A stretch of DNA of 39,236 bases from a virus, in the IMG/VR virus record IMGVR_UViG_3300034108_001023, positions 1 to 39,236 of that record, one strand, 5' to 3'. Of the stretch, positions 12,592-37,246 are shown one piece after another (position 1 is the first letter of the stretch; every line of letters begins with the position of its first letter). The notes beneath the pieces were generated by a model, which was given only the letters and a program-made list of their open reading frames with translations, ran no database searches and was not told the origin of the DNA. A program made the translations under genes and the position numbers.

Positions 12592-13704
12592 AACAGTTCC
12601 CTGATCAGTGTTCTGAAGGCTCGCTCCGCTGTTGCCGGGACAACACCGTTTCCGAGGAGACGAAGTTCGTCGGTTCGATTGTCACAGGAGACGCACAGCT
12701 TGGCATAGTCCAGCCCACCGGCAGGCCCATCAGGGTCTCCACCCAGCGGGGGTTGAGTTTGCCGTTCACCTGCTGATCCAGCTTGTCGATCATGCTGCCG
12801 TCCTTCTGCCGGTGCGCTCCGGTCGACACGGTGGCTGTCTGCCATTGCTTCACCTGCGCCGTCAGCGGCATCGTCGCCACATCCCCCTTGGCTTGCCTCT
12901 TCGCCCATGTCTCCGGGTTCTCGTCCGTTGTCTTGCCGGCTCTCGGTGTTGCCCACGACTCTGGGCGGCTCCCATCCGTACTGCTGCTCGCCGGGACGGC
13001 TGGGCCATGCTGCTTGATAACCACCGTGGTGAGACTCTCCTGCTGTCCTTTCATACCGCGGCTCCTGTTCTGGAATCCCTGTCGAACCTCGCTGGCTTGT
13101 ACTGTGGGCCAGAAGCACAGACGTGCCGAGGGGGGGGGGTAAGCGCTTGAGCTGAGACCCGCCTTGCGAATTCTTGGCCTCGTTCGCTGTCATGGTTGGC
13201 CATGATGAACACCCGCTTGCGTTGGTGCGGTGCTCCGCATTCAGACGCGCTGAATATGCCCCACGTCGTTCGATAACCCATTCCTGCCAGGTCTTCGATG
13301 ACGTCGGACAGCCCCAAGCTGATATGTCCTTCGACGTTCTCAAAGAAGCAGCACCGAGGTCTGAGAAGTCGAATGCCGTCTGCGATGTAGGGCCACAGGT
13401 GCCTCGGGTCGTCCTTACCTCGGCGCTGCCCTGCTGCACTGAAGGGTTGGCATGGGTAGCCCCCAGTGAGGATGTCCACTCGGTCGCGAAACGCTGCCCA
13501 AGGGAAGGTCTTAAGATCCGGCCAGATAGGTGCTGGGTCCATGAGTCCCGCCTCCATTTTCGCAACCAGATTGCTGATGGCGAAGGCTTCGATCTCACAA
13601 AGAGCGACTGTGCGCAGACTTGGGATTGCTCGCTTGAGTCCAAGCTCAATGCCTCCGTATCCAGCGCAGAGGCCAACGTGTGTAACTGCTTTGGAAGTAT
13701 CCAT
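12588..13704 (-). CDS. DNA cytosine-5 methyltransferase, frame interrupted at a C10 tract
   Basis: From ATG 13704 the frame carries motif I (VGLCAGYGGIELG, residues 10-22), catalytic motif IV GGYPCQPFS (C85), motif VI ENV (122-124) and motif VIII QRKRV (161-165), then stops at 13051. Motif X (LRLLGNGVVPATAERAF) is in a different frame that ends at 12588, where its stop overlaps the primase start by ATGA. Removing one base from the C10 run at 13130-13139 joins the two into a single 371-residue enzyme of normal length with all motifs in order. So this is either an assembly or sequencing slip, a phase-variable gene, or programmed slippage. It would methylate cytosines in phage DNA, probably to evade host restriction. 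Confidence 0.8.
12605..13054 (-). other. Overlapping frame with methyltransferase C-terminus-like sequence
   Basis: In the third minus frame, the same DNA reads ESWATPRAGKTTDENPETW and then LNPRWVETLMGLPVGWTMP, segments that look like the variable and C-terminal region of many phage cytosine methyltransferases. The frame is also open upstream (WPTVQASEVRQGFQNRSRG) to the C10 run. With nine Cs it joins the +1 frame reading SSWPTMTANEAKNSQGG. It therefore overlaps the frame that carries motif X. Whether it is translated is unknown; an ATG at 13054 exists. It could be a remnant of an alternative target-recognition region. Confidence 0.4.
13130..13139 (-). repeat. C10 homopolymer in the methyltransferase gene
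   Basis: Ten consecutive Cs on the coding strand (G10 on the plus strand) sit between motifs VIII and X. This is exactly where loss of one base would restore the methyltransferase frame. Homopolymers of this length are prone to polymerase slippage and to base-calling error. Confidence 0.9.
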
Positions 13705-13705
13705 G

Positions 13706-14971
13706 TCATTCCGCCCTCCTCTCAAATGCCAACGCCTCCTCGCTGATGAACCAGCCCTTCGGCCACTCGGTCAGGTAGATCCCGCCCAGCGTCCGCACCC
13801 GGCTCAGTGCCACGTAGGCCTGCCCGGGCTCTCGGGCCGCTCGGATATCAATCCTCGCGGCATCCAGGGTCAGTCCCTGCGCCCGGTGTATGGTCATCGC
13901 GTAGGCCAATCGGAGCGGGTATTGTTGGACGGTGACCCCCAGACTCTCAAAGAACCATTTGCGCCGGCCCACTGAAATATACCCACCGCGGCTCCAGACC
14001 ACGATGTCGCTGCCCCGATAGTCCACCACTTTGCCCACCTGCCCATTGTAGAAGCCCTGCTCCGCATCGTTCGCGGTGAACATGACCGCAGCCCCGGGCT
14101 TCAACTGCAGCACCCGCGGCGTGCTCATGTTCTTGGTGGCGAACTCCACCGCCTGATCCACACCCTTGACCTCGGCGTCAAACACGGCAATCGGGCCATC
14201 AATTGAGCTCAACCGATAATTATTCCACTTATCCACCTGCACGTTGTGCGTCATCAGCCGGGTAATATGTTCAGGCGGGTTCATCCTGAGCGCACTCCGC
14301 AGCAACTGGTTGTCCCGCGGCTTCATCCTGCCCACCCGGAACCCGCTCAACATCTCAATGAAAGGCACGTCATTCTGCCGCCGCACCTTCTCGAGCTTGA
14401 TCGTCTTGAAGTCGGCCTCCTTCCAAGCCTGACTCAGGAATGCCCAGTCGTATGGCTTGCTCTGGTCGGTCCTGACCGGCGGCAACTGCAGGAAGTCGCC
14501 CAGGAAGATAACCTGTAACCCGCCGAAAGGTCGGCTGTCTTCCCTGATCCGCTTCACCCAGAAGTTCAGGAAGTCGAGGTGCCGGCCGGCCATCATGCTG
14601 ATCTCGTCGACCACCAGCACCTCGGTGCCCCGCACCCGCTTGCGGGCGCCATGAATCGAAGGCTGCTCCTCTAGCCTCTCGGCAGCCTGCAGGAAGTCCT
14701 CGCCATCCTGCGGCCCCAACTGCATCCCGCACCACCTGTGCACGGTGGTCCCGCCTATGTTCAGCGCGGCAATGCCTGTCGGGGCCGTGATGGCCACGTC
14801 CCGAACTCCTTCCACCCTGCTCAGGAACTCCCGCAGCAGCGTGCTCTTGCCGGTGCCCGCCTGCCCCGTGAGGAAGACGTTCCCGAACGATGTTGCCCAG
14901 ACCATAAAACGGTCCTCGGGCGTCGGATCGAAGTCGTCCCCGATCACATGGACAGACGGGCTGGCAATCAT
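13706..14971 (-). CDS. Pif1/Dda-like superfamily 1B DNA helicase
   Basis: The protein has 421 residues with ATG at 14971. Helicase motifs appear in order: Walker A GQAGTGKST (K42), motif Ia TAPTGIAALNIGG, Walker B VLVVDEISMM, motif III VIFLGDFLQLPPV, motif IV-type region KLEKVRRQND, motif V YAMTIHRAQGLTLD and motif VI YVALSRVRTL. This set and the 'TIHRAQG' signature are characteristic of Pif1/RecD-like 5'-to-3' helicases such as T4 Dda. It probably remodels replication forks or recombination intermediates beside the exonuclease, SSB-like and RuvC-like proteins encoded upstream. The methyltransferase ATG follows its stop by one base. Confidence 0.92.
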   Translation of the reverse strand: MIASPSVHVIGDDFDPTPEDRFMVWATSFGNVFLTGQAGTGKSTLLREFLSRVEGVRDVAITAPTGIAALNIGGTTVHRWCGMQLGPQDGEDFLQAAERLEEQPSIHGARKRVRGTEVLVVDEISMMAGRHLDFLNFWVKRIREDSRPFGGLQVIFLGDFLQLPPVRTDQSKPYDWAFLSQAWKEADFKTIKLEKVRRQNDVPFIEMLSGFRVGRMKPRDNQLLRSALRMNPPEHITRLMTHNVQVDKWNNYRLSSIDGPIAVFDAEVKGVDQAVEFATKNMSTPRVLQLKPGAAVMFTANDAEQGFYNGQVGKVVDYRGSDIVVWSRGGYISVGRRKWFFESLGVTVQQYPLRLAYAMTIHRAQGLTLDAARIDIRAAREPGQAYVALSRVRTLGGIYLTEWPKGWFISEEALAFERRAE

Positions 14972-21633: not shown

Positions 21634-22161
21634 TTACCGATGGGCGATATGGAGATCGACCACATCCAGAATGGTGTAAATTTCAATGTCGCCGGTATTC
21701 GTAGCAACGCCAAGTCCATCAGGGCTTTTCGCCTGCTGGGCGTAGTAGTCGAGCCGGTAGGTGTTTGTCTTGTGCGGCTGGATGCGCTCGGTCTGGTACA
21801 AATAGGCGTTGGTCTGGTTGTAGACGTAGGTGCTGACCGAGTAGCCGACCAGCGTGTTGTTGGTCACGTCCCAGATGCGCGTGCGGGTGCCATGTGTCGC
21901 ATGGAATGGGCTGATGACGCGGATCTGGTACTCGCCTGCCTCGACCGTGAACTGGTTGTTCGCAAGGCTTGTGATGATGCCATACGGGTCGCTGTGGATC
22001 TCATTCAGCGTGCGGGTTGTCCAAGTGTTTGCCACCGAGGCACCGCCGTCGACCCCAGTCGCCTTCTGGTCCTGCAGGGTCGCAATACGCAGCACCAAGG
22101 CATCGACGTCCTTCCTGAGCTTGTTGATCAGGCTGGTGCTGGTCTGTGAATCGTAGCTCAT
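21634..22161 (-). CDS. Fibre/receptor-binding protein with TNF/C1q-like domain
   Basis: The protein has 175 residues from ATG 22161, overlapping the stop of the giant gene (ATGA). A short coiled coil (INKLRKDVDALVLRIATLQDQ) precedes a jelly-roll-like C-terminal domain: AGEYQIRVISPFHATHGTRTRIWDV, then YQTERIQPHKTNTYRLDYYAQQ and a GLGVATNTGDIEIYTILDVVDL ending. This pattern is common at the tip of phage tail appendages. It would trimerise through the coil and bind the host surface or cap a fibre. It lies right after the injected-type proteins, the place where T7 carries gene 17 (the tail fibre). Confidence 0.72.
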   Translation of the reverse strand: MSYDSQTSTSLINKLRKDVDALVLRIATLQDQKATGVDGGASVANTWTTRTLNEIHSDPYGIITSLANNQFTVEAGEYQIRVISPFHATHGTRTRIWDVTNNTLVGYSVSTYVYNQTNAYLYQTERIQPHKTNTYRLDYYAQQAKSPDGLGVATNTGDIEIYTILDVVDLHIAHR

Positions 22162-25100
22162 TGCTTAACCTTCTTTCGGATGATGCGTTGCGCCTCGTCA
22201 AGGCTAGCCGCGATGCCGATCAGGCTGCCGGCGGGGCCGTAGAGGCGGAGACTGCCCTTGGCCTTGCCTGGGAGCGCACGGTAGCCACCGGGGAAGCTGT
22301 AGGCACCGGGCATGGCAGAGTCGGGGGAGGGCATAAAGGCAAACTGGCTAGGATCGCCATACACCGGGTTCTTTACAAACACCGTGTTGCCTACGCTCAC
22401 AGACTCAGAGCCACCGATGACTGGCTGGTCGGTGCGCTTGTCGTAGAAGTAGGCGTGCTCCTTCGGGTCCATTCCGACCGGCACGTAGTTCTCCAAGTCA
22501 CCCGGTATGGATCGGTCGGCCATGATCTTTCCGTCGACCGTTGCCACTGGGAACTTGGCGGACTTGCCCTCGTAGATCCGCTGCACGCCGGGTTTAACCA
22601 CGAACTTCGGGTTCTGCAAGCGGGTCACTGTATCGTATCCGATCACCTTGCCGGGTCCACCAGCAGCGCCATCGGGCTCGTGCACAGCAACCACATACTT
22701 GCCGGTTCTCAGGAAGGCCGGAATGTCGATGCGTGCGGCTACCTGAGTACCCGGCTTAATGCTTCTGGCAGCGCCAAACTTTGCCTTTTTCTCAGAGCTC
22801 AGAGCGTCGACAGCCTCGGCGTCGGTAGGTGGGTTGGCGAAGTCCTGATTGCGGCCGATGTCGCGCTGGATTGTTTCCGGCATATACCGGATATCCTCCG
22901 AGGTAGCCTTGAACCGCTGCGAGAGGGGGATGACGTTGCCGGCGTTGTCCTTGGTGATCGCATCAACCAGTTTGACCTGGCTTGAATCTGCGACGTAGTA
23001 GATACGTTCGTTGCCGGGTAGTTGAACAATGCCAGCCTTGGTGGGCTGATTTTCCGCACTGAACCCAGACATCACTTGCCCAAGCGTTTGCGGTGTAGCT
23101 TGGAATACGGGAGCCCCTTCAGGAATACGCAGGAAGACCCGCTTCACTTCGGGCACGGCCTTTGTCGAGGTCATCACCTTGGCCGCCTCAATAAAGCTGT
23201 CGGACAACCTTTTGTTGATAGGCTTCAGGTCTTTAGCGTAACCACGCAGCTCCTTAATGAACTCAGGAACGTCGTCAATGGAGCCCCAGTCGAACTCAGG
23301 CAGCATTCCATCATCCACCGAGCTGTAGCCCTTGGACGAGAAGTACTCCTGAGCAGCCACGTCCTCGTCGAACATACGCATTGCGTCGTTAGCAACACGC
23401 AGGCCGGCGTCCAATCGCACAGCCTCGTCACCAAGGCGCTTGGAATAGTTTTCAGCAGCCTTCTTGTCAGTGGTAAACGAGAACGCTTGGCGGGACACAC
23501 CCGAGGTCTCGCCGCGCATCCGCTTGTCGAACACGTTGAACCCACCCGTAGGCGTCCCGTGGTAGACAGGACCGATAGTGTACCCAGCCGCCTTCGCCGC
23601 CTCATCGACCATCCGCTGCGCGGTTACCGTGTCGCCCTTCTTCACCGCGGAGAGGTAGTCGGTGTCCGAGGCCGGCATATTCCGCACGCTGATTGCCGCG
23701 GCGATCTTCTTGGAGGGCACCGCCCACAGGTTCTCCGGATCGAACCGCTCGATCTCGGAAGCCTTCTTCAGGCGGATGGGATCCTCCATGCCGTCGTAGA
23801 GCGCACCGTACAGCCTGTAGCCCTTCTCAAACAGGTCCATGGCCTCGCGGTGGTCCTTGACGCCGCGGCCAGTAGCCATGTCGCCGGCAGGCATGAAGCG
23901 AGGCTGACCTGATTCACTCACCGACTTACGCATTTCGGGCGTAATATCAACGCGCCAAATGGTAGTTTTCTGTCCTTCTTTCCGAGCTTTTTGATACTCC
24001 GAGAAGTCAGCGTATTCAGTGGGCTTTCCTTGGCCTGTATTGACTTCGTTTTTCTTCACCTCGCTGCCCCATTGTTTCACGTACTTCTGAACCTCTGAAG
24101 GCAGGATCTTGTCGTAGAATCCCTTCATTCCTTCGCCGCCGACCTTGAGATCAAGACCACGCAATGTCATCCTGCCTCCACCAGACTGACCTTCTCCTTT
24201 GGCTATTTTATCGGCGATCTCTTTGCCGACGGCATCAGATACACGGCTTTGATTGATGCCTGTTTCAGAAAACAAGTCGGTTCCATTTTTGCCAACAACC
24301 GAAACATCATATTTGTCGGGTCCGACTCGACGATAATCAATGTAATCAACCTGTTTGCTAAGGTCGAACCGTTCTGCCTGAGTCTCTCCAGTAGTCCACC
24401 CAATCCATTCCTTTCCAGAAGCGACAGCATCGCGCAGCGCACGCTTGAACATCTGCAGCGACCAGTCTTTTCGGAACGGTGCGTCTGCAATGCCTTTGGC
24501 GATTCTTGAATCGTAGTTCTTCTTCAGCTTCTCAAGCGATCCTTCAACGTGGTGCACACCGCCATCAGGAGCCACAAGCCGGTACAGACCGTCTTTGACC
24601 TCAATGTGCATGACGCTAGGGAACTCGCCTTTAGCCACCAGATCACGGTACTGATACACTGGAACCTTCGACCAATCAGTTCCTTGGTCCTCAAGATATC
24701 CCTTTTCACGCGCCTGTTGATGGCGGTCAGACTGGATCTCCTCAATGAATAGACCCGGCTTTCCACTGTTGTCTGCACGCTCGTTGACCCGCATATGGGC
24801 AACGTAGTTTGGAATGTCTCTGAAATGAGTCGACGTGTACGGACTCGCATTGTCAGAGGTCAGCACCACCTCGCGGTAGTTCTCACCTCCCGGCAACTGA
24901 TACCTTGAATACTGCGCTTCGGTTCCAAGCTCTTGGCTTTCAAAGCGCAGCACTGCGTCTTCGTAGGCAGACCAGTCAGCGTTTGATCGCGTTCGCTGGG
25001 CTCTGCGTTCAAGGCGGTCGACCTCGTCCTGCGTGATCGACTTGCCTTCTATGCCGGAGGTTACTTCCTCAAACTTGACTTGGCCTTCGTTCTTGAGGTG

Positions 25101-28100
25101 CTCAATGATCTTCTCCTTCGGAACCTTGCCACCATTCTCCTTGGCGATGCGCTCGACGGCCTGAGCAAACCCAGTCCATTTCAGCTCCTCTGGTTTGACT
25201 CCGCTTCCTTTTCCGGGATCAACGGAGGCAAGCACCTGTTGAGGTGAAGCAACCTTTGGCAACTTAGCGTTAACAACTTCTTCCAGCTTGCTATAGAAGC
25301 CTTGCTGGTCGGAGGGCATGAAGCGCATATCGCCTTCGCCAACCACAAACTTCGGCATATTGGTCTGAACCTTCCGAGTGAATGCCGGTGGCTGTGTTTT
25401 TGATAAGAAATCGCGGAACACGTCCTTGATCATCGTCTTCTGAGGCAGTGTTCCGATTGCCTTGCCCGGTATCAGCGCTTCGTATGATGGATGCGGCTTA
25501 GCTCCGATGGTCTCAGCACGCACCGGCTCGGCACCGCTGAACTGAACCACGGCAACAACCTGCCCCGGCGTGAAGTCTTTGTTCTGCAGGTTGTAGTTCC
25601 TGAGCACGTCCTTCCAGCTCCTGATTCCTAGTGCCTTCTTGTTGTCGTGCGATCCAATTGTGCGCACCAGAAAGTCACGATCATTAAACGTGAGTCCTCT
25701 TTCAGATTGCTCTCCAGATCTCTCAAGCTGTGTGAGTCTTGCCCAATCTTCCAGACTGTTTATCTCCGGGACATCGATGCTTCTGCCCTCACCTCTGCGG
25801 TACTCAATCCACTGCTTGCGTGCGTTGCGGGCTATCTTGTCGAGCTTCTCCTTCAGCTTTGGATTCTGAGATATGGAGTCTGCCAATTCCTCACCAAACG
25901 CACGTGAGAACGCACGGCTGGATGCGCTGGACTCTGGACCACCAAGGACAACAAGTCCGATGCCATCGGTAGCCTTGATCTTGTCCATCACCTTGTCGGT
26001 CATCCCCGAGAACGTGCCGGCCCATGCGCCTTTGCCGGAAATTTCAGGCAGGAAAGGATAGCCCATTCCACCCATCAGCACGTCGACTTTGCGTCCAAGC
26101 TGGGTGACGTATGGACGCCCAGCATCCGCCCAGTCGGAAACGAACGCGAAACCGCTCTTGCCGCGCATTGCCTGACGCTGCTCATCAGTGACTGCCAGCT
26201 TGTCGATCAAGTCCGGCGGCATGAACCGGAACGTCCCGAGCATTTCACCGTCTCTAAGCATCGACGTGTCACCGGAGGCCACCTTCTTGGCGACCTCTGG
26301 CGACTCGGGAGTGATTACATCCCCCGCTTGTCGAACCGTCCCGAGTTCTTGCCGGCCTTCTTCTCGGCCTTGCGTGCGACCGAGAGCGCTATCGCCACGG
26401 CCTGCTTCTGCGGTTTGCCGGCCTTCATTTCGCGGGACACGTTGCTGCTGATCGACTTCTGGCTGTAGCTTTGCTTGAGTGGCATCTGCTTTCCTTTCTG
26501 CTTGGGTTTGTGTGTCGTAGATTCCGATGAGCTTTCCATCGGGACCGTAGAGCTTGTGCTTGGCACCGCTGATGATGCGGTAGCCCTCGTCGGAGTTGAT
26601 GACCGACTTGTCGCCGATGGTCTCGGCAGGCATCCAGCGCTGCTTCGAGAGCTGGTAGGCTTCCTCGGAGAACTTCGCCTTGAAGTCCATCGGAGACATC
26701 GAGCCAACACGATCCAGCCGGAAGCTGCGAACGAACTTGCTTCCGCCTTTCTCAGCAGCGCCAACAAAGTCGCCAAGGAACTTTGCCTTCTCGACTCCGA
26801 ATATCTCAGCAGATCGGCGAGCGCCTTCCTTCTGGTCGAGGTTGGTAAAGTACCTCGCCAGATCGGTCATAAACCCATCTGTGTTGCTCCACAGGCCTCC
26901 AATGCTGCCATCCTTCTTCAGCAGCTTGCTGAGTTCGTTTCGGACCTTGGTGATGTCGATGGCGTTTACCACCGGGTTGTCTGCCTTTGTGATCTTGAAG
27001 CTGTACGGAGAGAACTCCCGTTCGCTGACTCGGATGCCGCTGTCGTACTTCGGAGAGTACTTCTTGGTGAGCTTGTTCCTCACCCGTTTAAGTGCTGCGA
27101 AGTAGGTGACGAACAGGCTGTTGCCGTTCTCGATTGCCAGATTGGTGCCTCGGATTAAGTCCTTCATCCGGGAGCTAATCGTCTGCGACTGCTCAATGGC
27201 ACTAAGTTGCTCTGGGCTGTACCTGCCAAGCACTTCTCCATCAACAAGCCGAGCACCGGGCACTTTTTCAACAATCGACCGTAGCGACGTGACATCTCTG
27301 TCGTCGCGTGCTCGGATCTCTTCGCTGGAAAGGTTCCTGATGCTGCCATCGGGCATCTGCTCGGCCAATCCAAGGTCGACCAGTTCCTTTGCTGCCAACG
27401 GGTTGGAAACGTCCTCCGGCTTCAGCACGCGGCCACCGCGGCTGTCATCGAGCATGATCTTCTCGTCCAGCTTGCGACGGGCACGCACCAAGTCGCGCAG
27501 CATGGCGTTCACCTGAGGCGATGCCTGCTTGAGATCCGGAAACAGGACTGAGTCAGTCGGCTTCACGCCAAACGTGCGCTCAATCGACGCAGCAGCGTTT
27601 GCGATGGCCTTGCTGGCGTTCTGCGTCAGTGCGGCATCCAGAAGCTGTCTGGTGAGGCCTGAGAAGCCTTTCAGCATTGCGTCCGGCTTCTGACCAGCAA
27701 TCAGTGCTGCAAAGTGTTCAGCAGCCAGCTCCGAGGCAATGTAGTCGGCCTTCTTGTTGATCGTGTCGAACTGGGCAAGTTCTGCTGCACGCTGCGGACT
27801 GCCTGCGGACAGCTTGTCTCGGTACTCGTTGAACCGAGCCTCAATTTCGGCATCATTGAAAGCGCCGTCGGACAGTTTACGGATGACGTCGCCTTCCTGA
27901 ATCCAGCGTCCGACAAGAGCGTTCTTGATCTCAGTTGCACCGCCTGCGAGCTGCTCGCTCTTTTCGAGAGCGTGGAACAGCTCGTGGCCGAGAGTGTACA
28001 ACGGGCTGTCGCCTTTGCCTTTTCCAAGGATGTCGGCATTGATGACGATGGTCGGGCGGTCTCCAATCTCAACCTGAACACCACGGGCACGGCCCTTGTA

Positions 28101-29456
28101 CTGATCAACAAAGTCAGTGTCTGAAAGGTACTTTACGTCAACATCGCCAAACCGACCTTTGACCAGTCCTTCGACGTCCATCAGCGCCGAGGCCGTATCG
28201 ACGCCGTGTTGGTCTCTGACACGCTCAAACAGCGCCTTGGTCGTCGGGTCCTGCTGGGCGTCGATGAATCGTCCTAGGTCGCCGGCACGGGCTTCCTTAG
28301 CGGCAGCGCCTGTGAGCTTCTGGTACATCCGGCCACCGAGAGCACCGGCAGAACCTTGAACACCGCCAGAACCGAGACCTGCAGCAGCACCCTCTTCACC
28401 GCCGGACAAAAAGCCCAAGCCTGTACCAACTGCAGCGCCTTCGATTCCTCCGGCAATACCCCTGAGTGAGGCATCCAGTGCAGCGTCACCGCCGTACTGC
28501 CCGACCACACCAAGCATACGCTGGCGCAGGTTAGCCCCCGGTGCAGCGCCAATGGCTTCCAGCGGTCCAACACGGGAAGGCTGGGTCATCAGGTTCTCGC
28601 CGGCCCGGGTCAGGGCCTCGCCGGCCTCGCGTGCGGTACGGATACCGGCAGGTATGGCAGCGAAGGCAGCAGCCTCCGGAGCAATTCCAAGAGCGCCGGC
28701 AACACCGGCTGTGGAAGCTGCGGTGCGAAGCGCTTCTGGCGTCATTCCAAGCGCTTCCGCTGTCATACGCTCGGCAGCACCGGCAAAGCGTTCCAGAGGC
28801 CTTGCAGCGCCAGCAACGGCACGTCCTGCGAGCTGGGTTCCTTTACCGACTGCACGGGTGGCGAGTTTGCCTGCGCCTAGGATTTCACCAACACCGGGTA
28901 CGAATAGTGTCGGGTCGAGAATCATTGAGACTCCCTGCACGTACTCCGGATTGGTGTACTCGGGCGGAACAATCAGTCCTTCTTCACCACGCTCCAGACG
29001 GGCGCTGGTGTTGGCAAAGTCTCGCGCCTCAAGGAATTGCTGGTAGCGAGACTCGGGCGTTCCACTGCCTGCAACCAGATCCTTGAACTTGAACAACGGT
29101 GACGATGGGTCCTGCGATTGAGCAGCAAGCCCGTAGAGCTGCCGGGTGCCTTGAGCCGCGCCCTCGATGTAGTTGAGCGGATTGATTACGGCACCTTGGG
29201 CTCCCTCGGAGATCGCGCCACCGATCATGTTGGCTGCAGCATCCACCGACTGCGCGATGGTGTTGATCCAGTCGGTCTGCTTGGTCCTGGCGTACTCCTC
29301 GTACTTCAGGTAGTCTGCCTGCGTTGGCGTGAAAGCAGGGTCCTGCATTGCCAGCGAGATGTCCTCGCCGGTAACCGGAGCATCCAGCAGGCTCTCGACG
29401 CTGTCTGCTGGTTCTGGGCCGAACAACAAGTCGATGTCTGCTTTGGATAGGGTCAT
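22158..29456 (-). CDS. Giant polyvalent protein (2432 aa) with metalloprotease and ADP-ribosyltransferase-like domains
   Basis: ATG at 29456 overlaps the upstream stop. The position is that of T7 gp16, the large internal virion (ejection) protein, but no T7-type transglycosylase is visible. Residues ~170-390 are Ala/Gly-rich helices that could insert in membranes. A zinc metalloprotease motif HELFH is at 491-495 with a downstream SELAAEH (E576/E580) as candidate third ligand. Polyvalent-protein domains follow: GGPESSASSRAF region (~1150-1370), PYTSTHF...NERADNSG with LFIEEIQSDRH and WTTGETQAERFDLSK (1539-1700), ADP-ribosyltransferase-like VYHGT...FSFTTDKKAAENY (1965-2003) and a DIPAFLRTGKY...HAYFYDKRTDQPV domain (~2230-2370). 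R-F/Y/W-M-P-type motifs stand at 940, 1077, 1378, 1853, 2190 and 2373, mostly between domains. It is probably injected with the DNA to modify host targets. Confidence 0.88.
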   Translation of the reverse strand: MTLSKADIDLLFGPEPADSVESLLDAPVTGEDISLAMQDPAFTPTQADYLKYEEYARTKQTDWINTIAQSVDAAANMIGGAISEGAQGAVINPLNYIEGAAQGTRQLYGLAAQSQDPSSPLFKFKDLVAGSGTPESRYQQFLEARDFANTSARLERGEEGLIVPPEYTNPEYVQGVSMILDPTLFVPGVGEILGAGKLATRAVGKGTQLAGRAVAGAARPLERFAGAAERMTAEALGMTPEALRTAASTAGVAGALGIAPEAAAFAAIPAGIRTAREAGEALTRAGENLMTQPSRVGPLEAIGAAPGANLRQRMLGVVGQYGGDAALDASLRGIAGGIEGAAVGTGLGFLSGGEEGAAAGLGSGGVQGSAGALGGRMYQKLTGAAAKEARAGDLGRFIDAQQDPTTKALFERVRDQHGVDTASALMDVEGLVKGRFGDVDVKYLSDTDFVDQYKGRARGVQVEIGDRPTIVINADILGKGKGDSPLYTLGHELFHALEKSEQLAGGATEIKNALVGRWIQEGDVIRKLSDGAFNDAEIEARFNEYRDKLSAGSPQRAAELAQFDTINKKADYIASELAAEHFAALIAGQKPDAMLKGFSGLTRQLLDAALTQNASKAIANAAASIERTFGVKPTDSVLFPDLKQASPQVNAMLRDLVRARRKLDEKIMLDDSRGGRVLKPEDVSNPLAAKELVDLGLAEQMPDGSIRNLSSEEIRARDDRDVTSLRSIVEKVPGARLVDGEVLGRYSPEQLSAIEQSQTISSRMKDLIRGTNLAIENGNSLFVTYFAALKRVRNKLTKKYSPKYDSGIRVSEREFSPYSFKITKADNPVVNAIDITKVRNELSKLLKKDGSIGGLWSNTDGFMTDLARYFTNLDQKEGARRSAEIFGVEKAKFLGDFVGAAEKGGSKFVRSFRLDRVGSMSPMDFKAKFSEEAYQLSKQRWMPAETIGDKSVINSDEGYRIISGAKHKLYGPDGKLIGIYDTQTQAERKADATQAKLQPEVDQQQRVPRNEGRQTAEAGRGDSALGRTQGREEGRQELGTVRQAGDVITPESPEVAKKVASGDTSMLRDGEMLGTFRFMPPDLIDKLAVTDEQRQAMRGKSGFAFVSDWADAGRPYVTQLGRKVDVLMGGMGYPFLPEISGKGAWAGTFSGMTDKVMDKIKATDGIGLVVLGGPESSASSRAFSRAFGEELADSISQNPKLKEKLDKIARNARKQWIEYRRGEGRSIDVPEINSLEDWARLTQLERSGEQSERGLTFNDRDFLVRTIGSHDNKKALGIRSWKDVLRNYNLQNKDFTPGQVVAVVQFSGAEPVRAETIGAKPHPSYEALIPGKAIGTLPQKTMIKDVFRDFLSKTQPPAFTRKVQTNMPKFVVGEGDMRFMPSDQQGFYSKLEEVVNAKLPKVASPQQVLASVDPGKGSGVKPEELKWTGFAQAVERIAKENGGKVPKEKIIEHLKNEGQVKFEEVTSGIEGKSITQDEVDRLERRAQRTRSNADWSAYEDAVLRFESQELGTEAQYSRYQLPGGENYREVVLTSDNASPYTSTHFRDIPNYVAHMRVNERADNSGKPGLFIEEIQSDRHQQAREKGYLEDQGTDWSKVPVYQYRDLVAKGEFPSVMHIEVKDGLYRLVAPDGGVHHVEGSLEKLKKNYDSRIAKGIADAPFRKDWSLQMFKRALRDAVASGKEWIGWTTGETQAERFDLSKQVDYIDYRRVGPDKYDVSVVGKNGTDLFSETGINQSRVSDAVGKEIADKIAKGEGQSGGGRMTLRGLDLKVGGEGMKGFYDKILPSEVQKYVKQWGSEVKKNEVNTGQGKPTEYADFSEYQKARKEGQKTTIWRVDITPEMRKSVSESGQPRFMPAGDMATGRGVKDHREAMDLFEKGYRLYGALYDGMEDPIRLKKASEIERFDPENLWAVPSKKIAAAISVRNMPASDTDYLSAVKKGDTVTAQRMVDEAAKAAGYTIGPVYHGTPTGGFNVFDKRMRGETSGVSRQAFSFTTDKKAAENYSKRLGDEAVRLDAGLRVANDAMRMFDEDVAAQEYFSSKGYSSVDDGMLPEFDWGSIDDVPEFIKELRGYAKDLKPINKRLSDSFIEAAKVMTSTKAVPEVKRVFLRIPEGAPVFQATPQTLGQVMSGFSAENQPTKAGIVQLPGNERIYYVADSSQVKLVDAITKDNAGNVIPLSQRFKATSEDIRYMPETIQRDIGRNQDFANPPTDAEAVDALSSEKKAKFGAARSIKPGTQVAARIDIPAFLRTGKYVVAVHEPDGAAGGPGKVIGYDTVTRLQNPKFVVKPGVQRIYEGKSAKFPVATVDGKIMADRSIPGDLENYVPVGMDPKEHAYFYDKRTDQPVIGGSESVSVGNTVFVKNPVYGDPSQFAFMPSPDSAMPGAYSFPGGYRALPGKAKGSLRLYGPAGSLIGIAASLDEAQRIIRKKVKQ

Positions 29457-31234
29457 TTGAGGGATTCGATTTGTTGAACGGCCTGCTGCTTGGTGATGGC
29501 TCCTGAAGCCTGGCGGGCTCGGATGGCGGCAACACGGGGGTCAGAGAGCAGTGGTGAGCGTGTCTGTCCGCTGCTGATTTGGTTCACGTAATCATCAGCG
29601 TTTTGACCAGCTTTTTTCATCGTATTGTTCATGGCATCAATACGCATCAGTTCTTTTTGCTTCACCACTTTTTCGCTGTCTCCAGCAATTGGGAAATACT
29701 GCTTTTCAGCCGCTGGGTATTCATCCGGTGAAATAACAGCACCAGAGCGATCTCTAAGGAAGTTTTCAATCCAAGCGTCACGCGCTGCCTCGTATGACTT
29801 GCGAGAATCGGTCTTCAACCGTTCAGGCATGAATCCGAATTCAGTCAAAGACCTTGGAGAGTATCCAGACTTGAAAACGCTATTGATCGTCTCGTTGTTC
29901 AATTTCATGCCGGCAGCAAATGCTGCTGACTTGCCTTGCGCTTCAGTCAACGGTTTGCCCTCGACCATCTTGGGCGCAGGCAGAATGTCGACCTTGCCGT
30001 CAGCACGCACCACGGTGATGCCACCGGGCAGGGTCTGGGTGTCGATTTGGATGGGTTTCTGTTGTCCAGCAATCTCAAGCACGCGATCAAGACCGGCAAA
30101 CACCTCTGGTCGCATACCCTGCTGGGCAGCGTACTGAGCGATATTCCTGCGCAAGTTTTCGTAAGGCACAGCCTCGGTGCGAGTGGTCTGGCCTTGCACC
30201 TCAATTGGAGGCAGGAACTGTGCTGCAGGCTGTTGAGCTGCAGGCTGTGTAGTAAACTGCTCCCGCGTCGGCATGGTCGGCTGTGGAGCCTGAGCACGCT
30301 GAAGCTGCGCTTGAAGCACTTGCTGTTGCCTTTGGGCATCCAGAATGCGTCCAACGGCTTGTTTTGGGTTTTCTGTGATGGTCGCCATCGACACGCCCAT
30401 TCCTCCGCCAATGCCACCTTGAAGCGATGGAATGCGGAACTGCTGTGGGCGCTCGACCAACATTGGTTGAAGTTTTGCCAACTGGGCTTGGATGGCTTGT
30501 GTGTCGCTAGGTGCAACACTGGACTGTTGGCGATAGCGCTCCAGTGCCTGCATATAGCCCTGCTGGTCGAATACAGGAGCCGTAGGCGGCATAGTAGCTG
30601 GTTGCACCGGACCAACCGGCTGCAGCATCTCGGTGGTCGGCTCGGTGACGGTCTGCGTGGTCGGCATCGTCAGTCCATAGCGCATCAGTTCACCGAGCTG
30701 TTGCGTGGTCTCGTACTGACCGCGGGCTTGAGCAATCTGCAGATCTTGCAGTTCTCGAGCTCTTCCCTGCTGCTGATCAGTCCGGTACTGGTTCAGCACC
30801 ATCACGGCGTCTCCAAGAGCCGCCTTCTTCTTGGCAAGGCTCATGTCCGGGAACTTCTCACCGAGCGCTGAGAACTTGTTAAGCATCTCCCGGTCGGCCT
30901 GCACCTGCTGGGTGTACCGCGGGATGTCCTGCTCGGTGACGCCCTGGGGGAGCGCCCCGGTCTCCATGTACTGCTGAATGGCAAGGTACTTGGGGTCCGA
31001 AGCCAACTGCTGCTGCATCAGCCCGGAGACAGTCTCCCAGCTCTGCGTGGCAGCCTCGGTCTCGGCCTTCTTGGTGCGGTACTGCTCAATAGCCTTCCCG
31101 AGGCCCTGGCCCATGGCAGCAATGCCCATCGCCAGGTTGCGCCCGGGGGCTGTTGCGGCCTCCATGTAGCCAGGAGGCAGCGGGCCGGTGTCGCCGCGTC
31201 CGGTGTATGGTGTGGAATAGCCGTAAGTTGCCAT
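29453..31234 (-). CDS. Internal virion / ejection protein (gp15 position), Gln-rich
   Basis: The protein has 593 residues from ATG 31234 and is coupled to the giant gene by ATGA. It is strongly Gln/Ala-rich and helical (LMQQQLASDPKYLAIQQYMET, LQDLQIAQARGQYETTQQLGEL, QQQVLQAQLQRAQ). A Pro/Thr-rich linker region lies around 195-360, and a structured C-terminal third carries GGITVVRADGKVDIL. It sits immediately before the giant gene, matching the gp15-gp16 pair of T7 internal proteins. A role in the ejected core is inferred from this synteny and composition; sequence similarity to T7 gp15 is not evident. Confidence 0.65.
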   Translation of the reverse strand: MATYGYSTPYTGRGDTGPLPPGYMEAATAPGRNLAMGIAAMGQGLGKAIEQYRTKKAETEAATQSWETVSGLMQQQLASDPKYLAIQQYMETGALPQGVTEQDIPRYTQQVQADREMLNKFSALGEKFPDMSLAKKKAALGDAVMVLNQYRTDQQQGRARELQDLQIAQARGQYETTQQLGELMRYGLTMPTTQTVTEPTTEMLQPVGPVQPATMPPTAPVFDQQGYMQALERYRQQSSVAPSDTQAIQAQLAKLQPMLVERPQQFRIPSLQGGIGGGMGVSMATITENPKQAVGRILDAQRQQQVLQAQLQRAQAPQPTMPTREQFTTQPAAQQPAAQFLPPIEVQGQTTRTEAVPYENLRRNIAQYAAQQGMRPEVFAGLDRVLEIAGQQKPIQIDTQTLPGGITVVRADGKVDILPAPKMVEGKPLTEAQGKSAAFAAGMKLNNETINSVFKSGYSPRSLTEFGFMPERLKTDSRKSYEAARDAWIENFLRDRSGAVISPDEYPAAEKQYFPIAGDSEKVVKQKELMRIDAMNNTMKKAGQNADDYVNQISSGQTRSPLLSDPRVAAIRARQASGAITKQQAVQQIESLK

Positions 31235-34465: not shown

Positions 34466-37246
34466 TTAGACGTCGGTTTTGCCGTAGAGTCTGAAAGGGA
34501 TTGCGATGGATTTGACCGAGTGAATCGTCAGCGCCCCGGTGGTGGTGGTGACCACTGGCTGCATGGTAATGGAGTGGCGGCGCAGGCGAGCCTTGTGGCT
34601 GAAAGACTGCAGGATGCCGGCGCGAAACCCGGAGATGTTACACCGCAAACCGGGAAGCGTGGAGTAGTCTTCTCGGAACGGAGCGAGGAAGTTGTCGCCG
34701 GAGTTGTTGGTCGCAAAAGTGCCCGAGCCATAGGTGTAGTACGCCGTGCGGCTCTTGGTTTCATTGGTGGCCACCGTGTAGGACTCGTTCACGCCGTCGA
34801 AGTTGGCCGTGATCGAGTAGGTCGGGTTCCAAGATGACAGCTCGAACTGCAGGCCCGTCCACTGCTTGTGATCAATGTCGTTCTCCCCGGAATGGCCGCG
34901 GAAGTATACCGTGGTCGCAATCTGCTGAATGGATCCGACACGAGTGCGATCCTGCAATGCATTCAGGTCGAAGGTGTGGATGAGTCCGCTCTCATCGGCC
35001 CAGCACAGCGTGTCGGTGCCGGCAACGATGACACGGGTGTAATACCGCGGGACAAGCAGCGAGCCCTCCCAGTATCCCTCCCACGCTTGGTTCAGGAAGT
35101 TGTAGACCAGTGTGCGCTGGTTGGTTCCGTCTCCGCCTTCGACAGGCACGCTCAGGATGTAGCGATTGTTGAAGTAGGCAGCGCAGGACTTGCCCCAGTG
35201 GGCTTGGTCGATCTCTTCGATGACGTCCTGAATAGGATCGGACAGCGGGAGAACCACCGACTGACTAATGCCAAACTCGGTCTGCTTTAGGCTGATGACT
35301 CCGCGCTGACTCAGGAAGACGATATCGGAGCCCGTGGAAGCGATAGACGCCTGACTGACGCATCCAAACTCCCGGGTGACCTCAGTGAGGCGGGTGGTCG
35401 ACAAGTCGCCGTAGAGGTTCTCTACAGCGAGAATGCTGCGCTCCTTGAAAACGATCAGCGTCGTGGTGTTGAAAGGATACAGGGCCACCACAGCGTCATT
35501 GGCACCCGTGTTCAGCTTGAACTCGTTCAGGATCGGGCTGTAGTGCAGCGGGTCCAGCACGTCTGACACTGCAAGATAGTCGGGTCCGTAGAGCAGCAAC
35601 AAGCGGTTCTGGAAGTACAGCCCCTCACGTCCTGCAGGCACGTTGGCTCCGGAGGCCGATGACTTCTTGATCGTGCCGGTGATGGCGCTTGATGTGATTT
35701 CGACAAGCGTCGAAGGCATCGAAACTCCGGTTGAAGACACTGTCGGAGTCGTCGAATAAGCACCTGCACTTGTGATCGTTACGCTGGTCAATTTCCCATT
35801 CGTCAAAACGGGAGTCAAAACAGCGGGAGTTCCAGTGCCTGTTACCGTGATCGAAGGGGTCGCAATGTATCCCGATCCCTGATTGATGATCGTGACCGTA
35901 GCGACCTGAATATTTGGGCTTGTTCCGCTGGTTGTGATTGAAACCACCGCACGGCTTGCGTCGTTCAGCGAGTCGGTCTCCTCGGTTACTCCAGAGAACA
36001 GCTTCAGCGAGTTCTTATCGCTCGGGAATACGTAGTAGATTTTGTTGGTAACCGTAGCGCCGCCATTGACTACGTTTGACAGCGTCACCTGATCGCCGGG
36101 AACGAACGGATGATTTGGGACGGTAATCGTATTAGTTACGTCAGATGACGCCACGATGGCGTTTACCGATGCAATCCGGTTGAAGCCATTGTCGAGAGCA
36201 GAGACCGGAGTGCCCGATGAGTACGAGGCCTCCATGATCAGCGGCAACCCATCGTTGTAGAAGTCGCTGATGCCCTCGGTGACATCGTAGCCTGTCGTGT
36301 TGTTCGACAGCTCAAAGTAGTACCGATCCGATGACGTCAGGCCTGACCTGAGCGTGACCGGGCTGGTGCCCTGCTGGCCGCTGGCCTGCGACAGGTGCAG
36401 CGTGCAGACGCCGCCGGCCTTCACGTTGACGTACATCCCGAAGCCCTGACCAGTCGATGTGGACGAGGTCCAGAGGTTCGGTGAATTGCCGATCTGGAAA
36501 ACCACAACACGATCACCGGACTGCAGGTCGGGTGTGACATTCAAGGTCACAGTGTTGTTGCCGGTATTGACGTCGGCTCCGGTGAAGTAGTACCGAGCGT
36601 TCCCGGGGCGCAGCATGACCACAGAGTTGGTGGCCTGAATCAAACGCACCGGGCTGTAGATATCGTGCCCGTTGAGCGGGATCTCCAAATGCGACTGATT
36701 GGGACGCACGAGGTACATCTTGCCCTGTCCTCCGTCGGAAGTGCGCACCTCGTTGGTGGCAACGATCAAGGCTTGGTAGCCGGTGTCCGGATCGCGGAAA
36801 GGCAGCACACCGAGGATGTCGGTGAAGGCTGTGGTGTTGTTGTAGGACTGGATGTTGCGATTGGTCGGACCACCAGTGAACGTGATGGCTGCAGACGACA
36901 GGATCGCGTTGGAGTTGGTGTCCGAGATGCAGCGGGTGCCGTTCGGGAACACCAGCACATTGGCACTGCTGTCGGAGCAGACAATCGTTCCGTTTGGAGG
37001 CGGACTGCCGCTCACAACATCAACCTGATTCGACCCTGATGTGACCGTTGCCGAGAAGGTGTTCAGGGTCCACTTGCCGCCCCACTTGGGCTGCACAATG
37101 CCCCAGCGGTTGCGGATGTTTTGATCCTGGAATATCCGGTTGACTGCCTGACTGACAAACTGGGCGGGCAACTGGGCGGGATCAAGGCGTGAGATGACTC
37201 CCTTGAAGCCGTCGTCGACCGATATGATGTCAGGCAGGTCAGGCAT
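34466..37246 (-). CDS. Tail nozzle protein (gp12-like)
   Basis: The protein has 926 residues from ATG 37246, two bases after the upstream stop. The first 40 residues (DGFKGVISRLDPAQLPAQFVSQAVNRIFQDQNIRNRWGI) are typical of podovirus tail tubular B/nozzle proteins, and the rest is beta-rich and propeller-like. A conserved core runs GLYFQNRLLLLYGPDYLAVSD, ALYPFNTTTLIVFKERSILAV, TGSDIVFLSQRGVISLKQTE, AYFNNRYILSVPV and LVYNFLNQAWEGYW. The middle (about 400-560) carries Thr/Ser/Gly repeats that may be an insertion with carbohydrate-binding folds. It would cap the tail and open to eject DNA. Confidence 0.78.
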   Translation of the reverse strand: MPDLPDIISVDDGFKGVISRLDPAQLPAQFVSQAVNRIFQDQNIRNRWGIVQPKWGGKWTLNTFSATVTSGSNQVDVVSGSPPPNGTIVCSDSSANVLVFPNGTRCISDTNSNAILSSAAITFTGGPTNRNIQSYNNTTAFTDILGVLPFRDPDTGYQALIVATNEVRTSDGGQGKMYLVRPNQSHLEIPLNGHDIYSPVRLIQATNSVVMLRPGNARYYFTGADVNTGNNTVTLNVTPDLQSGDRVVVFQIGNSPNLWTSSTSTGQGFGMYVNVKAGGVCTLHLSQASGQQGTSPVTLRSGLTSSDRYYFELSNNTTGYDVTEGISDFYNDGLPLIMEASYSSGTPVSALDNGFNRIASVNAIVASSDVTNTITVPNHPFVPGDQVTLSNVVNGGATVTNKIYYVFPSDKNSLKLFSGVTEETDSLNDASRAVVSITTSGTSPNIQVATVTIINQGSGYIATPSITVTGTGTPAVLTPVLTNGKLTSVTITSAGAYSTTPTVSSTGVSMPSTLVEITSSAITGTIKKSSASGANVPAGREGLYFQNRLLLLYGPDYLAVSDVLDPLHYSPILNEFKLNTGANDAVVALYPFNTTTLIVFKERSILAVENLYGDLSTTRLTEVTREFGCVSQASIASTGSDIVFLSQRGVISLKQTEFGISQSVVLPLSDPIQDVIEEIDQAHWGKSCAAYFNNRYILSVPVEGGDGTNQRTLVYNFLNQAWEGYWEGSLLVPRYYTRVIVAGTDTLCWADESGLIHTFDLNALQDRTRVGSIQQIATTVYFRGHSGENDIDHKQWTGLQFELSSWNPTYSITANFDGVNESYTVATNETKSRTAYYTYGSGTFATNNSGDNFLAPFREDYSTLPGLRCNISGFRAGILQSFSHKARLRRHSITMQPVVTTTTGALTIHSVKSIAIPFRLYGKTDV

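What the first reader, a model, noticed from the sequence alone, without database searches (positions are those of the whole stretch)
22158..29456. Giant injected-type protein is a string of domains separated by R-F-M-P-like motifs and carries its own HExxH protease
Six short motifs of the form R/A-F/Y/W-M-P occur at residues 940, 1077, 1378, 1853, 2190 and 2373, mostly at boundaries between recognisable polyvalent-protein domains. HELFH at 491-495 marks a metalloprotease-like domain in the same chain. A testable idea is that the protein is a polyprotein, cut at these sites (by its own protease or a host one) after delivery, releasing separate effectors. The motif may instead be only a recurrent linker at domain edges of polyvalent proteins.
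Basis: partly seen in the sequence, partly recalled or inferred. Interest (0 to 1): 0.85.

Follow-up and report, generated by a model that had tools for sequence, protein, structure and literature searches.

The report
Tag-delimited cassette array in phage protein
A giant phage protein is built from interchangeable cassettes joined by one short tag whose spelling tends to change in step along the chain from phage to phage, as expected if the tags are cut or gripped by a matching partner, most likely the protease-like domain at the front of the same chain.

Summary
The minus-strand 2,432-aa ORF has six [RA][FYW]MP sites (0.03 expected by shuffling), a seventh degenerate copy (RNMP, 1925) and HELFH at 491-495.

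The motif is not an ordinary linker. In relatives the protein is a fixed head (with HExxH plus an invariant downstream Glu) followed by shuffled cassettes: 26 arrays, 22 cassette families. Over 61 junction types the four tag positions carry 3.4-5.5 bits; the 24 flanking positions 0.4-1.4.

Homologous heads in other phages use FQP, FLP, FSP or FRP instead, and the middle residue tends to be shared along one chain (167 same-residue pairs against 93.8 +- 8.9; tag z 8.3, 43 control patterns -1.4 to 2.1). Other polyvalent proteins show the same effect more weakly.

Best reading: the tags are recognition sites, most probably cut by the head's own zincin-like domain, making a plug-and-play self-processing polyprotein (about 0.5). 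Cleavage is not shown. Rivals: a recombination-maintained linker, or a docking or ejection tag. Autoprocessing of polyvalent proteins by zincins is in print (PMC5512222); the tag, cassette array and dialects were not found there.

The parts
22158..29456 (-). giant polyvalent-type ORF, 2,432 aa
26640..29456 (-). head, residues 1-939; constant part shared by relatives; no [FYW]MP inside
27972..27986 (-). HELFH, residues 491-495; H, E and H are invariant columns of alignment A1
27729..27731 (-). Glu 576, invariant in A1; presumed third zinc ligand
   Evidence: invariant column; role inferred
26628..26639 (-). tag 1, RWMP 940-943 (head-end tag)
26229..26627 (-). cassette family 1 (first position of most arrays); holds a ~34-aa module homologous to one in the last cassette
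26217..26228 (-). tag 2, RFMP 1077-1080
25326..26216 (-). cassette family 7
25314..25325 (-). tag 3, RFMP 1378-1381
23901..25313 (-). cassette family 4 (called D4 here; EIQSD-type domain; no Pfam match at E 0.05; matches part of phrog_7348, a 2,564-position family labelled endolysin)
23889..23900 (-). tag 4, RFMP 1853-1856
23685..23888 (-). cassette family 3 (about 70 aa)
23673..23684 (-). degenerate tag RNMP 1925-1928
22890..23672 (-). cassette family 2: ADP-ribosyltransferase of polyvalent proteins (ART-PolyVal)
   Evidence: E 4.7e-7, 31.1 bits, cut-off 31.2
22878..22889 (-). tag, RYMP 2190-2193
22341..22877 (-). cassette family 5, like phage L5 gp82 / phrog_586 (22.6 bits, below the Pfam cut-off of 27)
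22329..22340 (-). tag, AFMP 2373-2376
22161..22328 (-). cassette family 0, the usual C-terminal end of the array

Best explanation
The protein is a self-processing cassette polyprotein. A constant N-terminal head, with a zincin-like metallopeptidase domain, is followed by an array of exchangeable effector cassettes, each bounded by the same short tag, [RK]-[FYW]-M-P in this lineage. The head's peptidase recognises the tag and cuts there, releasing cassettes as separate proteins during virion maturation or after delivery. Because recognition is specific, a cassette must carry the local tag to work, so the tags of a chain keep the same spelling and change together between head lineages (FMP, FQP, FLP, FSP, FRP). 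Shown by computation: cassette shuffling at the tags, tag conservation above flanks, concordance of the tag residue along a chain, conserved HExxH plus Glu, tags at or in low-confidence (probably flexible) segments. Inferred: that the recognition factor is the head zincin, that recognition means cleavage, when it happens, and that the protein is delivered into the cell.
For: Six sites against 0.03 expected. 61 junction types from 33 upstream and 29 downstream sequences: R precedes in 53 of the 57 that were found as [FYW]MP, which did not ask for R; flanks 0.4-1.4 bits. 26 arrays, 22 cassette families, both orders 2-3 and 3-2 seen. In several pairs cassettes are 94-98% identical while heads are 27-83% identical. 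Heads found with the A1 profile: L423, L526, L527, L528 and L460 use FQP; L467/L537 (near-identical) FLP; L172/L542 (96% identical heads) FSP; L152 FRP. 20 non-redundant of 66 head proteins, 193 [FYW]XP sites: same-X pairs 167 vs 93.8 +- 8.9; without M 98 vs 52.4; without M, D, N, G 68 vs 23.2 (0 of 20,000 permutations each); head-end X against later sites 41 vs 21.3, p 0.0002, 17 proteins. With the mixed L103 and L027, L029 put back: 180 vs 110.4 +- 9.8; looser reductions (22 and 27 proteins) agree. 43 control patterns z -1.37 to 2.09, tag z 8.34. HExxH in 32 of 39 MP proteins, always before the first tag, never after. H491, E492, H495, E576 invariant and the Pro of tag 1 nearly invariant in A1. 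Tags lie at the start of, or inside, pLDDT<50 stretches: five of five (RNMP included) in one model, where 340 of 1,063 residues are that low, and tag 1 in the other. Two-anchor concordance 9 of 14 vs 2.7 and 7 of 8 vs 1.6 (three proteins in both).
Against: No cleavage data. L005 and L027-L029 have a head-end NFQP but RFMP arrays, and L115, L092 and L103 mix L, M or Q, so head and tag are not strictly coupled. Foldseek gave no PDB match at E <= 0.001 for the head model (mean pLDDT 70), so the zincin assignment rests on sequence. L031 has four FMP tags and a long upstream region with no HExxH. N4 vRNAP, which also has an HExxH, is packaged unprocessed according to PMC5512222. The giant BcepIL02 gp70, which has an HExxH, shows no clearly recurrent tag, nor by eye do the PH1 and CRP-9 proteins, which have none. 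In the wider set the S, Q, A and N labels are hardly or not enriched against shuffles and the D4-labelled set is not significant. The codon bias of the tag fits DNA-level exchange as well. The scissile bond is unknown, and X-Pro bonds are, as recalled, poor protease sites.
Confidence: 0.5

Rival explanations
1. Recombination linker. The tag is a short stretch of shared DNA at which cassettes are swapped; it is kept because crossovers happen there, and has no function in the protein.
For: Cassettes are exchanged at the tag. In close relatives Tyr in the tag is TAT in 15 of 15 unique sites although TAT is 21% of Tyr codons in those proteins, and Phe is TTC in 96% of 46 against 76%. Tyr before Met outside tags is TAC 19, TAT 4 (long ORFs of any frame in the relatives), so this does not look like codon context. 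In unrelated MP proteins TTC is also over-used (46 of 58 against 29.2 expected) and TAT is 11 of 14 against 7.6.
Against: Pro and Arg codons of the tag vary within one protein. Tags persist in proteins with third-position GC from 0.27 to 0.78. The middle residue tends to change in concert across sites, including the head-end tag, where the same first cassette follows in most relatives. R is conserved across 33 upstream sequences.
Confidence: 0.25
2. Docking or ejection tag. The tag is a short linear motif that binds a phage-specific partner (head domain, chaperone, portal or ejection channel) in packaging or threading of the long chain, without cleavage.
For: The dialect effect only asks for a matching partner, not for a cut; tags sit at or in probably flexible segments. 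In P1, DarB's first 30 residues suffice to send a reporter to the capsid (PMC9024508, passages), a precedent for short packaging signals.
Against: A packaging signal is needed once per chain; a copy at nearly every cassette border is more than needed (inference). An HExxH precedes the tags in 32 of 32 MP proteins that have one.
Confidence: 0.15
3. Cut by a protease other than the head zincin: a host enzyme or another phage protease acting in trans.
For: L031 has tags but no HExxH; L005 and L027-L029 carry very different heads with RFMP arrays.
Against: No peptidase family appeared for the 20 other window proteins scanned against PHROGs, of which 7 had no hit at E 0.01 (other ORFs were not scanned, and one amidase match at 34466-37246 is of the lysis kind). 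A common host enzyme would not predict dialects that tend to follow head lineages; hosts were not assigned here.
Confidence: 0.1

Closest known systems
Polyvalent proteins of phages and conjugative elements (Iyer et al. 2017, PMC5512222)
   Same: Giant multidomain phage protein with an ART-PolyVal domain and a zincin-like HExxH domain; autoprocessing by the zincin is proposed there (section 8 read in full).
   Different: No cleavage sites or inter-domain tags were found in its text (0 hits for interdomain, between domains, short motif, conserved motif, domain boundaries; 'cleavage site' only in a reference). Cassette shuffling at a tag and per-lineage tag dialects are added here. Its supplementary files were not seen.
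Phage P1 DdrB (as described in PMC5512222)
   Same: Polyvalent protein with an HExxH-type domain, reported there as processed to about 76 kDa before packaging.
   Different: Its peptidase domain is C-terminal; its sequence was not compared here.
N4-type virion RNA polymerase (PMC12633501, passages)
   Same: Giant ejected protein of loosely connected domains with an HExxH motif.
   Different: Packaged unprocessed according to PMC5512222; its sequence was not examined for tags here.
Polymorphic toxins (PMC3482391, search listing only)
   Same: Constant part plus exchangeable C-terminal cassettes.
   Different: As recalled, one C-terminal effector at a time with an immunity gene; here three to seven cassettes in series, each bounded by a tag.
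Polyproteins of RNA viruses of eukaryotes (recalled; analogy also drawn in PMC5512222)
   Same: One chain carrying its own protease and repeated recognition sites.
   Different: Different peptidases, and here the segments are shuffled between viruses.

Membership tests
Polyvalent protein (Iyer et al. 2017) | several conflict-type domains in one phage or plasmid polypeptide | tested here: inconclusive
   In the window's own protein two sub-threshold Pfam matches: ART-PolyVal 31.1 bits against cut-off 31.2 and L5-gp82 22.6 against 27, plus the HExxH region. Relatives add a ParB C-terminal cassette (phrog_2579, E 2.5e-36) and DUF7178 (E 9e-29). Probably met, but no match above a curated cut-off in the window's protein.
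Polyvalent protein (Iyer et al. 2017) | carried in the virion and delivered with the DNA | not testable with these tools
   position among virion-type genes only
Zincin-like metallopeptidase | HExxH plus downstream Glu | tested here: met
   H491, E492, H495, E576 are invariant columns of the 18-row alignment A1
Zincin-like metallopeptidase | zincin fold | tested here: inconclusive
   mean pLDDT 69.6; no PDB match at E <= 0.001; Pfam only Peptidase_M91 at E 0.032, below cut-off
Self-cleaving polyprotein | repeated recognition-like sites at module borders | tested here: met
Self-cleaving polyprotein | site sequence follows its recognition factor across lineages | tested here: inconclusive
   strong concordance of sites along a chain, but L005 and L027-L029 break head-tag coupling and three proteins mix residues
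Self-cleaving polyprotein | proteolysis at the sites | not testable with these tools
   needs protein chemistry
Polymorphic toxin | single variable C-terminal toxin (definition recalled) | tested here: not met
   several cassettes in series and a nearly constant last cassette
Polymorphic toxin | linked immunity gene | not tested
   not searched for

The most novel reading that the evidence does not exclude
Phages carry a plug-and-play, self-processing delivery polyprotein with a lineage-specific 'tag code': the head protease and the inter-cassette tags co-evolve, the tag decides which cassettes can be exchanged between phages, and similar codes (FMP, FQP, FLP, FSP, FRP; perhaps DIR[FY]S and xGGx[VI] types) exist across polyvalent proteins at large.
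Probability: 0.4. Interest if true: 0.88.

Novelty: new variant of a known kind. Interest (0 to 1): 0.74.

Why it matters
PMC5512222 proposes processing of polyvalent proteins by their zincins but names no sites. A tag that marks cassette borders turns this into a simple test (look for termini at named residues), offers a way to parse unannotated giant phage proteins into effectors without knowing their folds, and predicts which cassettes can move between phages. If the head proves to be a peptidase specific for a short tag with natural variants, it is also a source of orthogonal sequence-specific proteases.

Tried and rejected
Internal translation start at each ATG of the tag: rejected as a general cause because the FQP, FLP, FSP and FRP tags at equivalent places have no Met. 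Motif shared by other proteins of the phage: the one FGFMP in the upstream gene is not conserved. Codon context as the cause of TAT-ATG: not supported.

Dialect tests that were weak or negative. Against shuffles, in the ART-labelled set (134 non-redundant of 190), MP is 12-fold, GG 5.7-fold and LP 3.2-fold (2 proteins) enriched, but S only 1.18-fold, and Q, A and N 0.82, 0.58 and 0.91; the whole diagonal is beyond 20,000 label permutations, and without MP p is 0.00005. With a tighter grammar and comparison between labels the ART set gives M 3.75, S 2.07, Q 2.60, N 4.04 (p 0.001, 0.009, 0.001, 0.013), A 1.54 and E 2.37 (not significant). The D4-labelled set (53 of 77) gives diagonal p 0.11; five of its six ratios exceed 1, none significant, and N is 0. 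MP labels were partly ascertained with an MP pattern. In one search the second line (two residues) is invalid because the list had already been shuffled; I do not use it. An early labelling regex missed most proteins and was replaced. The first HExxH regex was too narrow and was replaced. In one search, 46 of 66 head proteins were dropped as redundant, among them L103 (mixed tags) and L027-L029 (NFQP then RFMP); one search puts L103, L027 and L029 back and the result holds. Presence of aromatic and Pro at the head-end sites is by construction (sites were found with [FYW]XP); the independent statement is the nearly invariant tag-1 Pro in A1. In one search M and P, and mostly the aromatic, are fixed by the search pattern.

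Of the seven MP proteins without HExxH, five (L024, L054, L093, L105, L108) open at a contig end, the upstream part of L107 lies in another frame and has an HExxH, and L031 really lacks it.

Foldseek's top hits for the head model were a zinc-metalloprotease toxin of a listed germ with TM about 0.16 and rmsd about 30 A; treated as meaningless, nothing fetched. The phage collection has no match to the head and 4 records with D4; in one, Dolichospermum phage Dfl-JY45, DIRFSRAA and GQPAFSRTE share FSR after two different domain ends, though a third candidate end, GQPMFYRAP, differs. In BcepIL02 gp70 no [FY]ab pattern is better than p 0.0096; three FSV sites can be picked by eye.
Full report
What is there. 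The finding lies on the minus strand of a 39,236-base virus record. The ORF runs from ATG at 29456 to 22158 and gives 2,432 aa. The six stated motifs and HELFH at 491-495 are present; shuffles of the protein expect 0.03 [RA][FYW]MP. Twenty other window proteins were scanned against PHROGs; 13 had a hit at E 0.01. Among them are a major head protein (E 2e-37), a scaffold, a head-tail adaptor, a very weak large terminase, primase, Dda-like helicase, methyltransferase and resolvase families, and a tail-fibre match (E 1e-9) just downstream of the giant gene. The giant gene therefore sits among virion-type genes, and 'delivered' is an inference from place.

A cassette array. A search of IMG/VR found 208 stretches that encode a relative; the best 80 (77 loci) were kept. 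About 30 of these share more than one region with the window's protein; most of the others match only the D4 stretch around 1375-1890. Mapping P0001 on the relatives shows a constant head of about 940 residues and then blocks that come and go and change order, with breaks at the tag. Cutting 26 proteins (the window's own among them, some cut by contig ends) at the tags gives 22 cassette families. Family 1 is usually first and family 0 last; the middle is shuffled, for example 4-3-2-5, 4-2, 6-3-2, 2-3 and 2-8. In several pairs cassettes are 94-98% identical while heads are 27-83% identical, so cassettes move between phages. The first and last cassettes share a small homologous module (15 of 34 identical, E 1e-6). 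Some cassettes resemble separate phage proteins or domains: L5 gp82 / phrog_586, a ParB C-terminal domain, DUF7178.

Tag against linker. Collapsing the junctions of this group to distinct upstream and downstream sequences leaves 61 junction types from 33 and 29 sequences. Arg precedes in 53 of the 57 found as [FYW]MP, although the pattern did not ask for it (56 of 61 in all). Relative entropy is 3.4, 3.6, 5.5 and 4.4 bits at R, [FYW], M and P, against 0.4-1.4 at the other 24 positions (M and P are fixed and the aromatic mostly fixed by the search). Two AlphaFold models of modest quality (mean pLDDT 70 and 62) put the tags they cover at or in stretches below 50; tag 2 was in neither.

Dialects within the head family. 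A profile of the head region (A1) finds homologous heads in other phages whose tags read differently. L423, L526, L527, L528 and L460 have FQP at the head end and again at later sites; L467 and the near-identical L537 have seven FLP; L172 and L542 three and six FSP; L152 three FRP; L087, L101, L094, L082, L110, L128 and L197 FMP. Taking every [FYW]XP after the head in 20 non-redundant proteins (193 sites; 66 head proteins before reduction), the same X recurs within a protein in 167 pairs against 93.8 +- 8.9; leaving out M gives 98 against 52.4, and leaving out M, D, N and G gives 68 against 23.2, none reached in 20,000 permutations. X at the head-end site predicts X at later sites (41 against 21.3, p 0.0002, 17 proteins). 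Forty-three control patterns of the same shape give z from -1.37 to 2.09; the tag gives 8.34. Exceptions matter: L005 and L027-L029 have NFQP at the head end and RFMP later, and L115, L092 and L103 mix residues. L103 and L027-L029 had been dropped as redundant; with L103, L027 and L029 back the figure is 180 against 110.4 +- 9.8, and looser reductions to 22 and 27 proteins give 181 against 109.4 and 235 against 157.9.

Dialects elsewhere. The same domain, here D4 or the ART domain, is followed in other giant phage proteins by different short tags, such as xFSP, xFQ, xFE, DIR[FY]S, NILYQ or xGGx[VI]. Where one protein holds both an ART-type end and a GxP-x-[FY] site, the next residue agrees in 9 of 14 proteins against 2.7 expected, p 0.0001, and in 7 of 8 with D4-checked ends against 1.6, p 0.00035; three proteins are in both sets. 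Over 134 non-redundant ART-labelled proteins the MP (12-fold) and GG (5.7-fold) dialects stand out against shuffles, S and Q only in comparison between labels (2.1- and 2.6-fold); the D4-labelled set (53 proteins) is not significant. I therefore call the general claim likely but weaker than the head-family result.

The protease. Of 39 proteins with at least three [FYW]MP and at least 1,000 aa, 32 hold an HExxH; in all 32 it is N-terminal to the first tag and in none is there one after it. Of the seven without, five open at a contig end, the upstream part of L107 lies in another frame and has an HExxH, and L031 is long and lacks it. Twenty-four of the 39 are relatives of the window's protein, so these are not independent events. 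In A1 the two His and the Glu of HExxH and Glu 576 are invariant, the ligand set described for these zincins in PMC5512222 section 8. The fold was not confirmed and Pfam has only a sub-threshold M91 match.

DNA or protein. Codons for Arg and Pro in the tag vary within single proteins, and tags persist in AT- and GC-rich phages, which argues for selection on the peptide. But Tyr is TAT in 15 of 15 unique tag sites of the close group, against 21% in the same proteins and 4 of 23 for other Tyr-Met pairs, and TTC is over-used in unrelated MP proteins too (46 of 58 against 29.2). So recombination through the tag is probably recent and frequent, and the linker hypothesis keeps real weight.

What it most likely is. 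A chain of swappable effectors in which the tag must be read by something that differs between lineages. The head's peptidase-like domain is the simplest reader, and cutting the simplest reading. I put the existence of a specific recognition factor at about 0.75 and cutting by the head at about 0.5. The idea that such zincins process polyvalent proteins was published in 2017 (PMC5512222, section 8 read in full; passages). I did not find inter-domain tags there. Searches for polyvalent proteins with phage, with cleavage site and motif, internal virion protein processing, ejection protein with domain shuffling, polyvalent protein with metallopeptidase or autoproteolysis, DdrB/DarA and interdomain cleavage (no paper) listed nothing that from title and abstract opening describes them; only listings were seen, except passages of PMC12633501, PMC9024508 and PMC9144972. 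The library holds open-licence papers only. Giant virion-type proteins are not all of this kind: BcepIL02 gp70 (4,667 aa, with an HExxH) shows no clearly recurrent tag, nor, by eye, do the PH1 protein and CRP-9 gp54.

Noticed in passing
22158-29456 (tags) and relatives L002-L030: Tyr codons in the tag are TAT in 15 of 15 unique sites and Phe TTC in 96%, unlike the rest of the proteins: a DNA-level trace, probably of recombination through the tag.
   Followed up: partly
22161-22331 and 26220-26627: First and last cassettes of the array share a ~34-aa module (GYR..LYGP.G.LIGI), as if the array were bracketed by two copies of it.
   Followed up: partly
L159, L136, L169, L203, L142, L167: A different repeated peptide, of the form Ax-GG-x-[VI], recurs through some giant phage proteins (37 against 6.5 expected in 6 proteins).
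   Followed up: partly
L245, L062, L233: Very long proteins with strongly repeated tags of the S type: DLRFSRPF/DIRFSRPV in L245 and DITFSL in L233, PQYSR in L062.
   Followed up: no
6517-8229: Very weak large-terminase match with an N-terminal Cys-rich stretch that matches phrog_2308 and an HNH family (phrog_1271).
   Followed up: no
29453-31234: Upstream 593-aa gene with one FGFMP that 9 of 12 spanning homologues read as FGFTP; probably a coincidence.
   Followed up: yes
12588-13709: DNA methyltransferase match (phrog_1008) between primase-like and helicase-like genes.
   Followed up: no
L107 (two ORFs in different frames): Head with HExxH and its tag array lie in two reading frames; a frameshift in the contig or two genes.
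   Followed up: no
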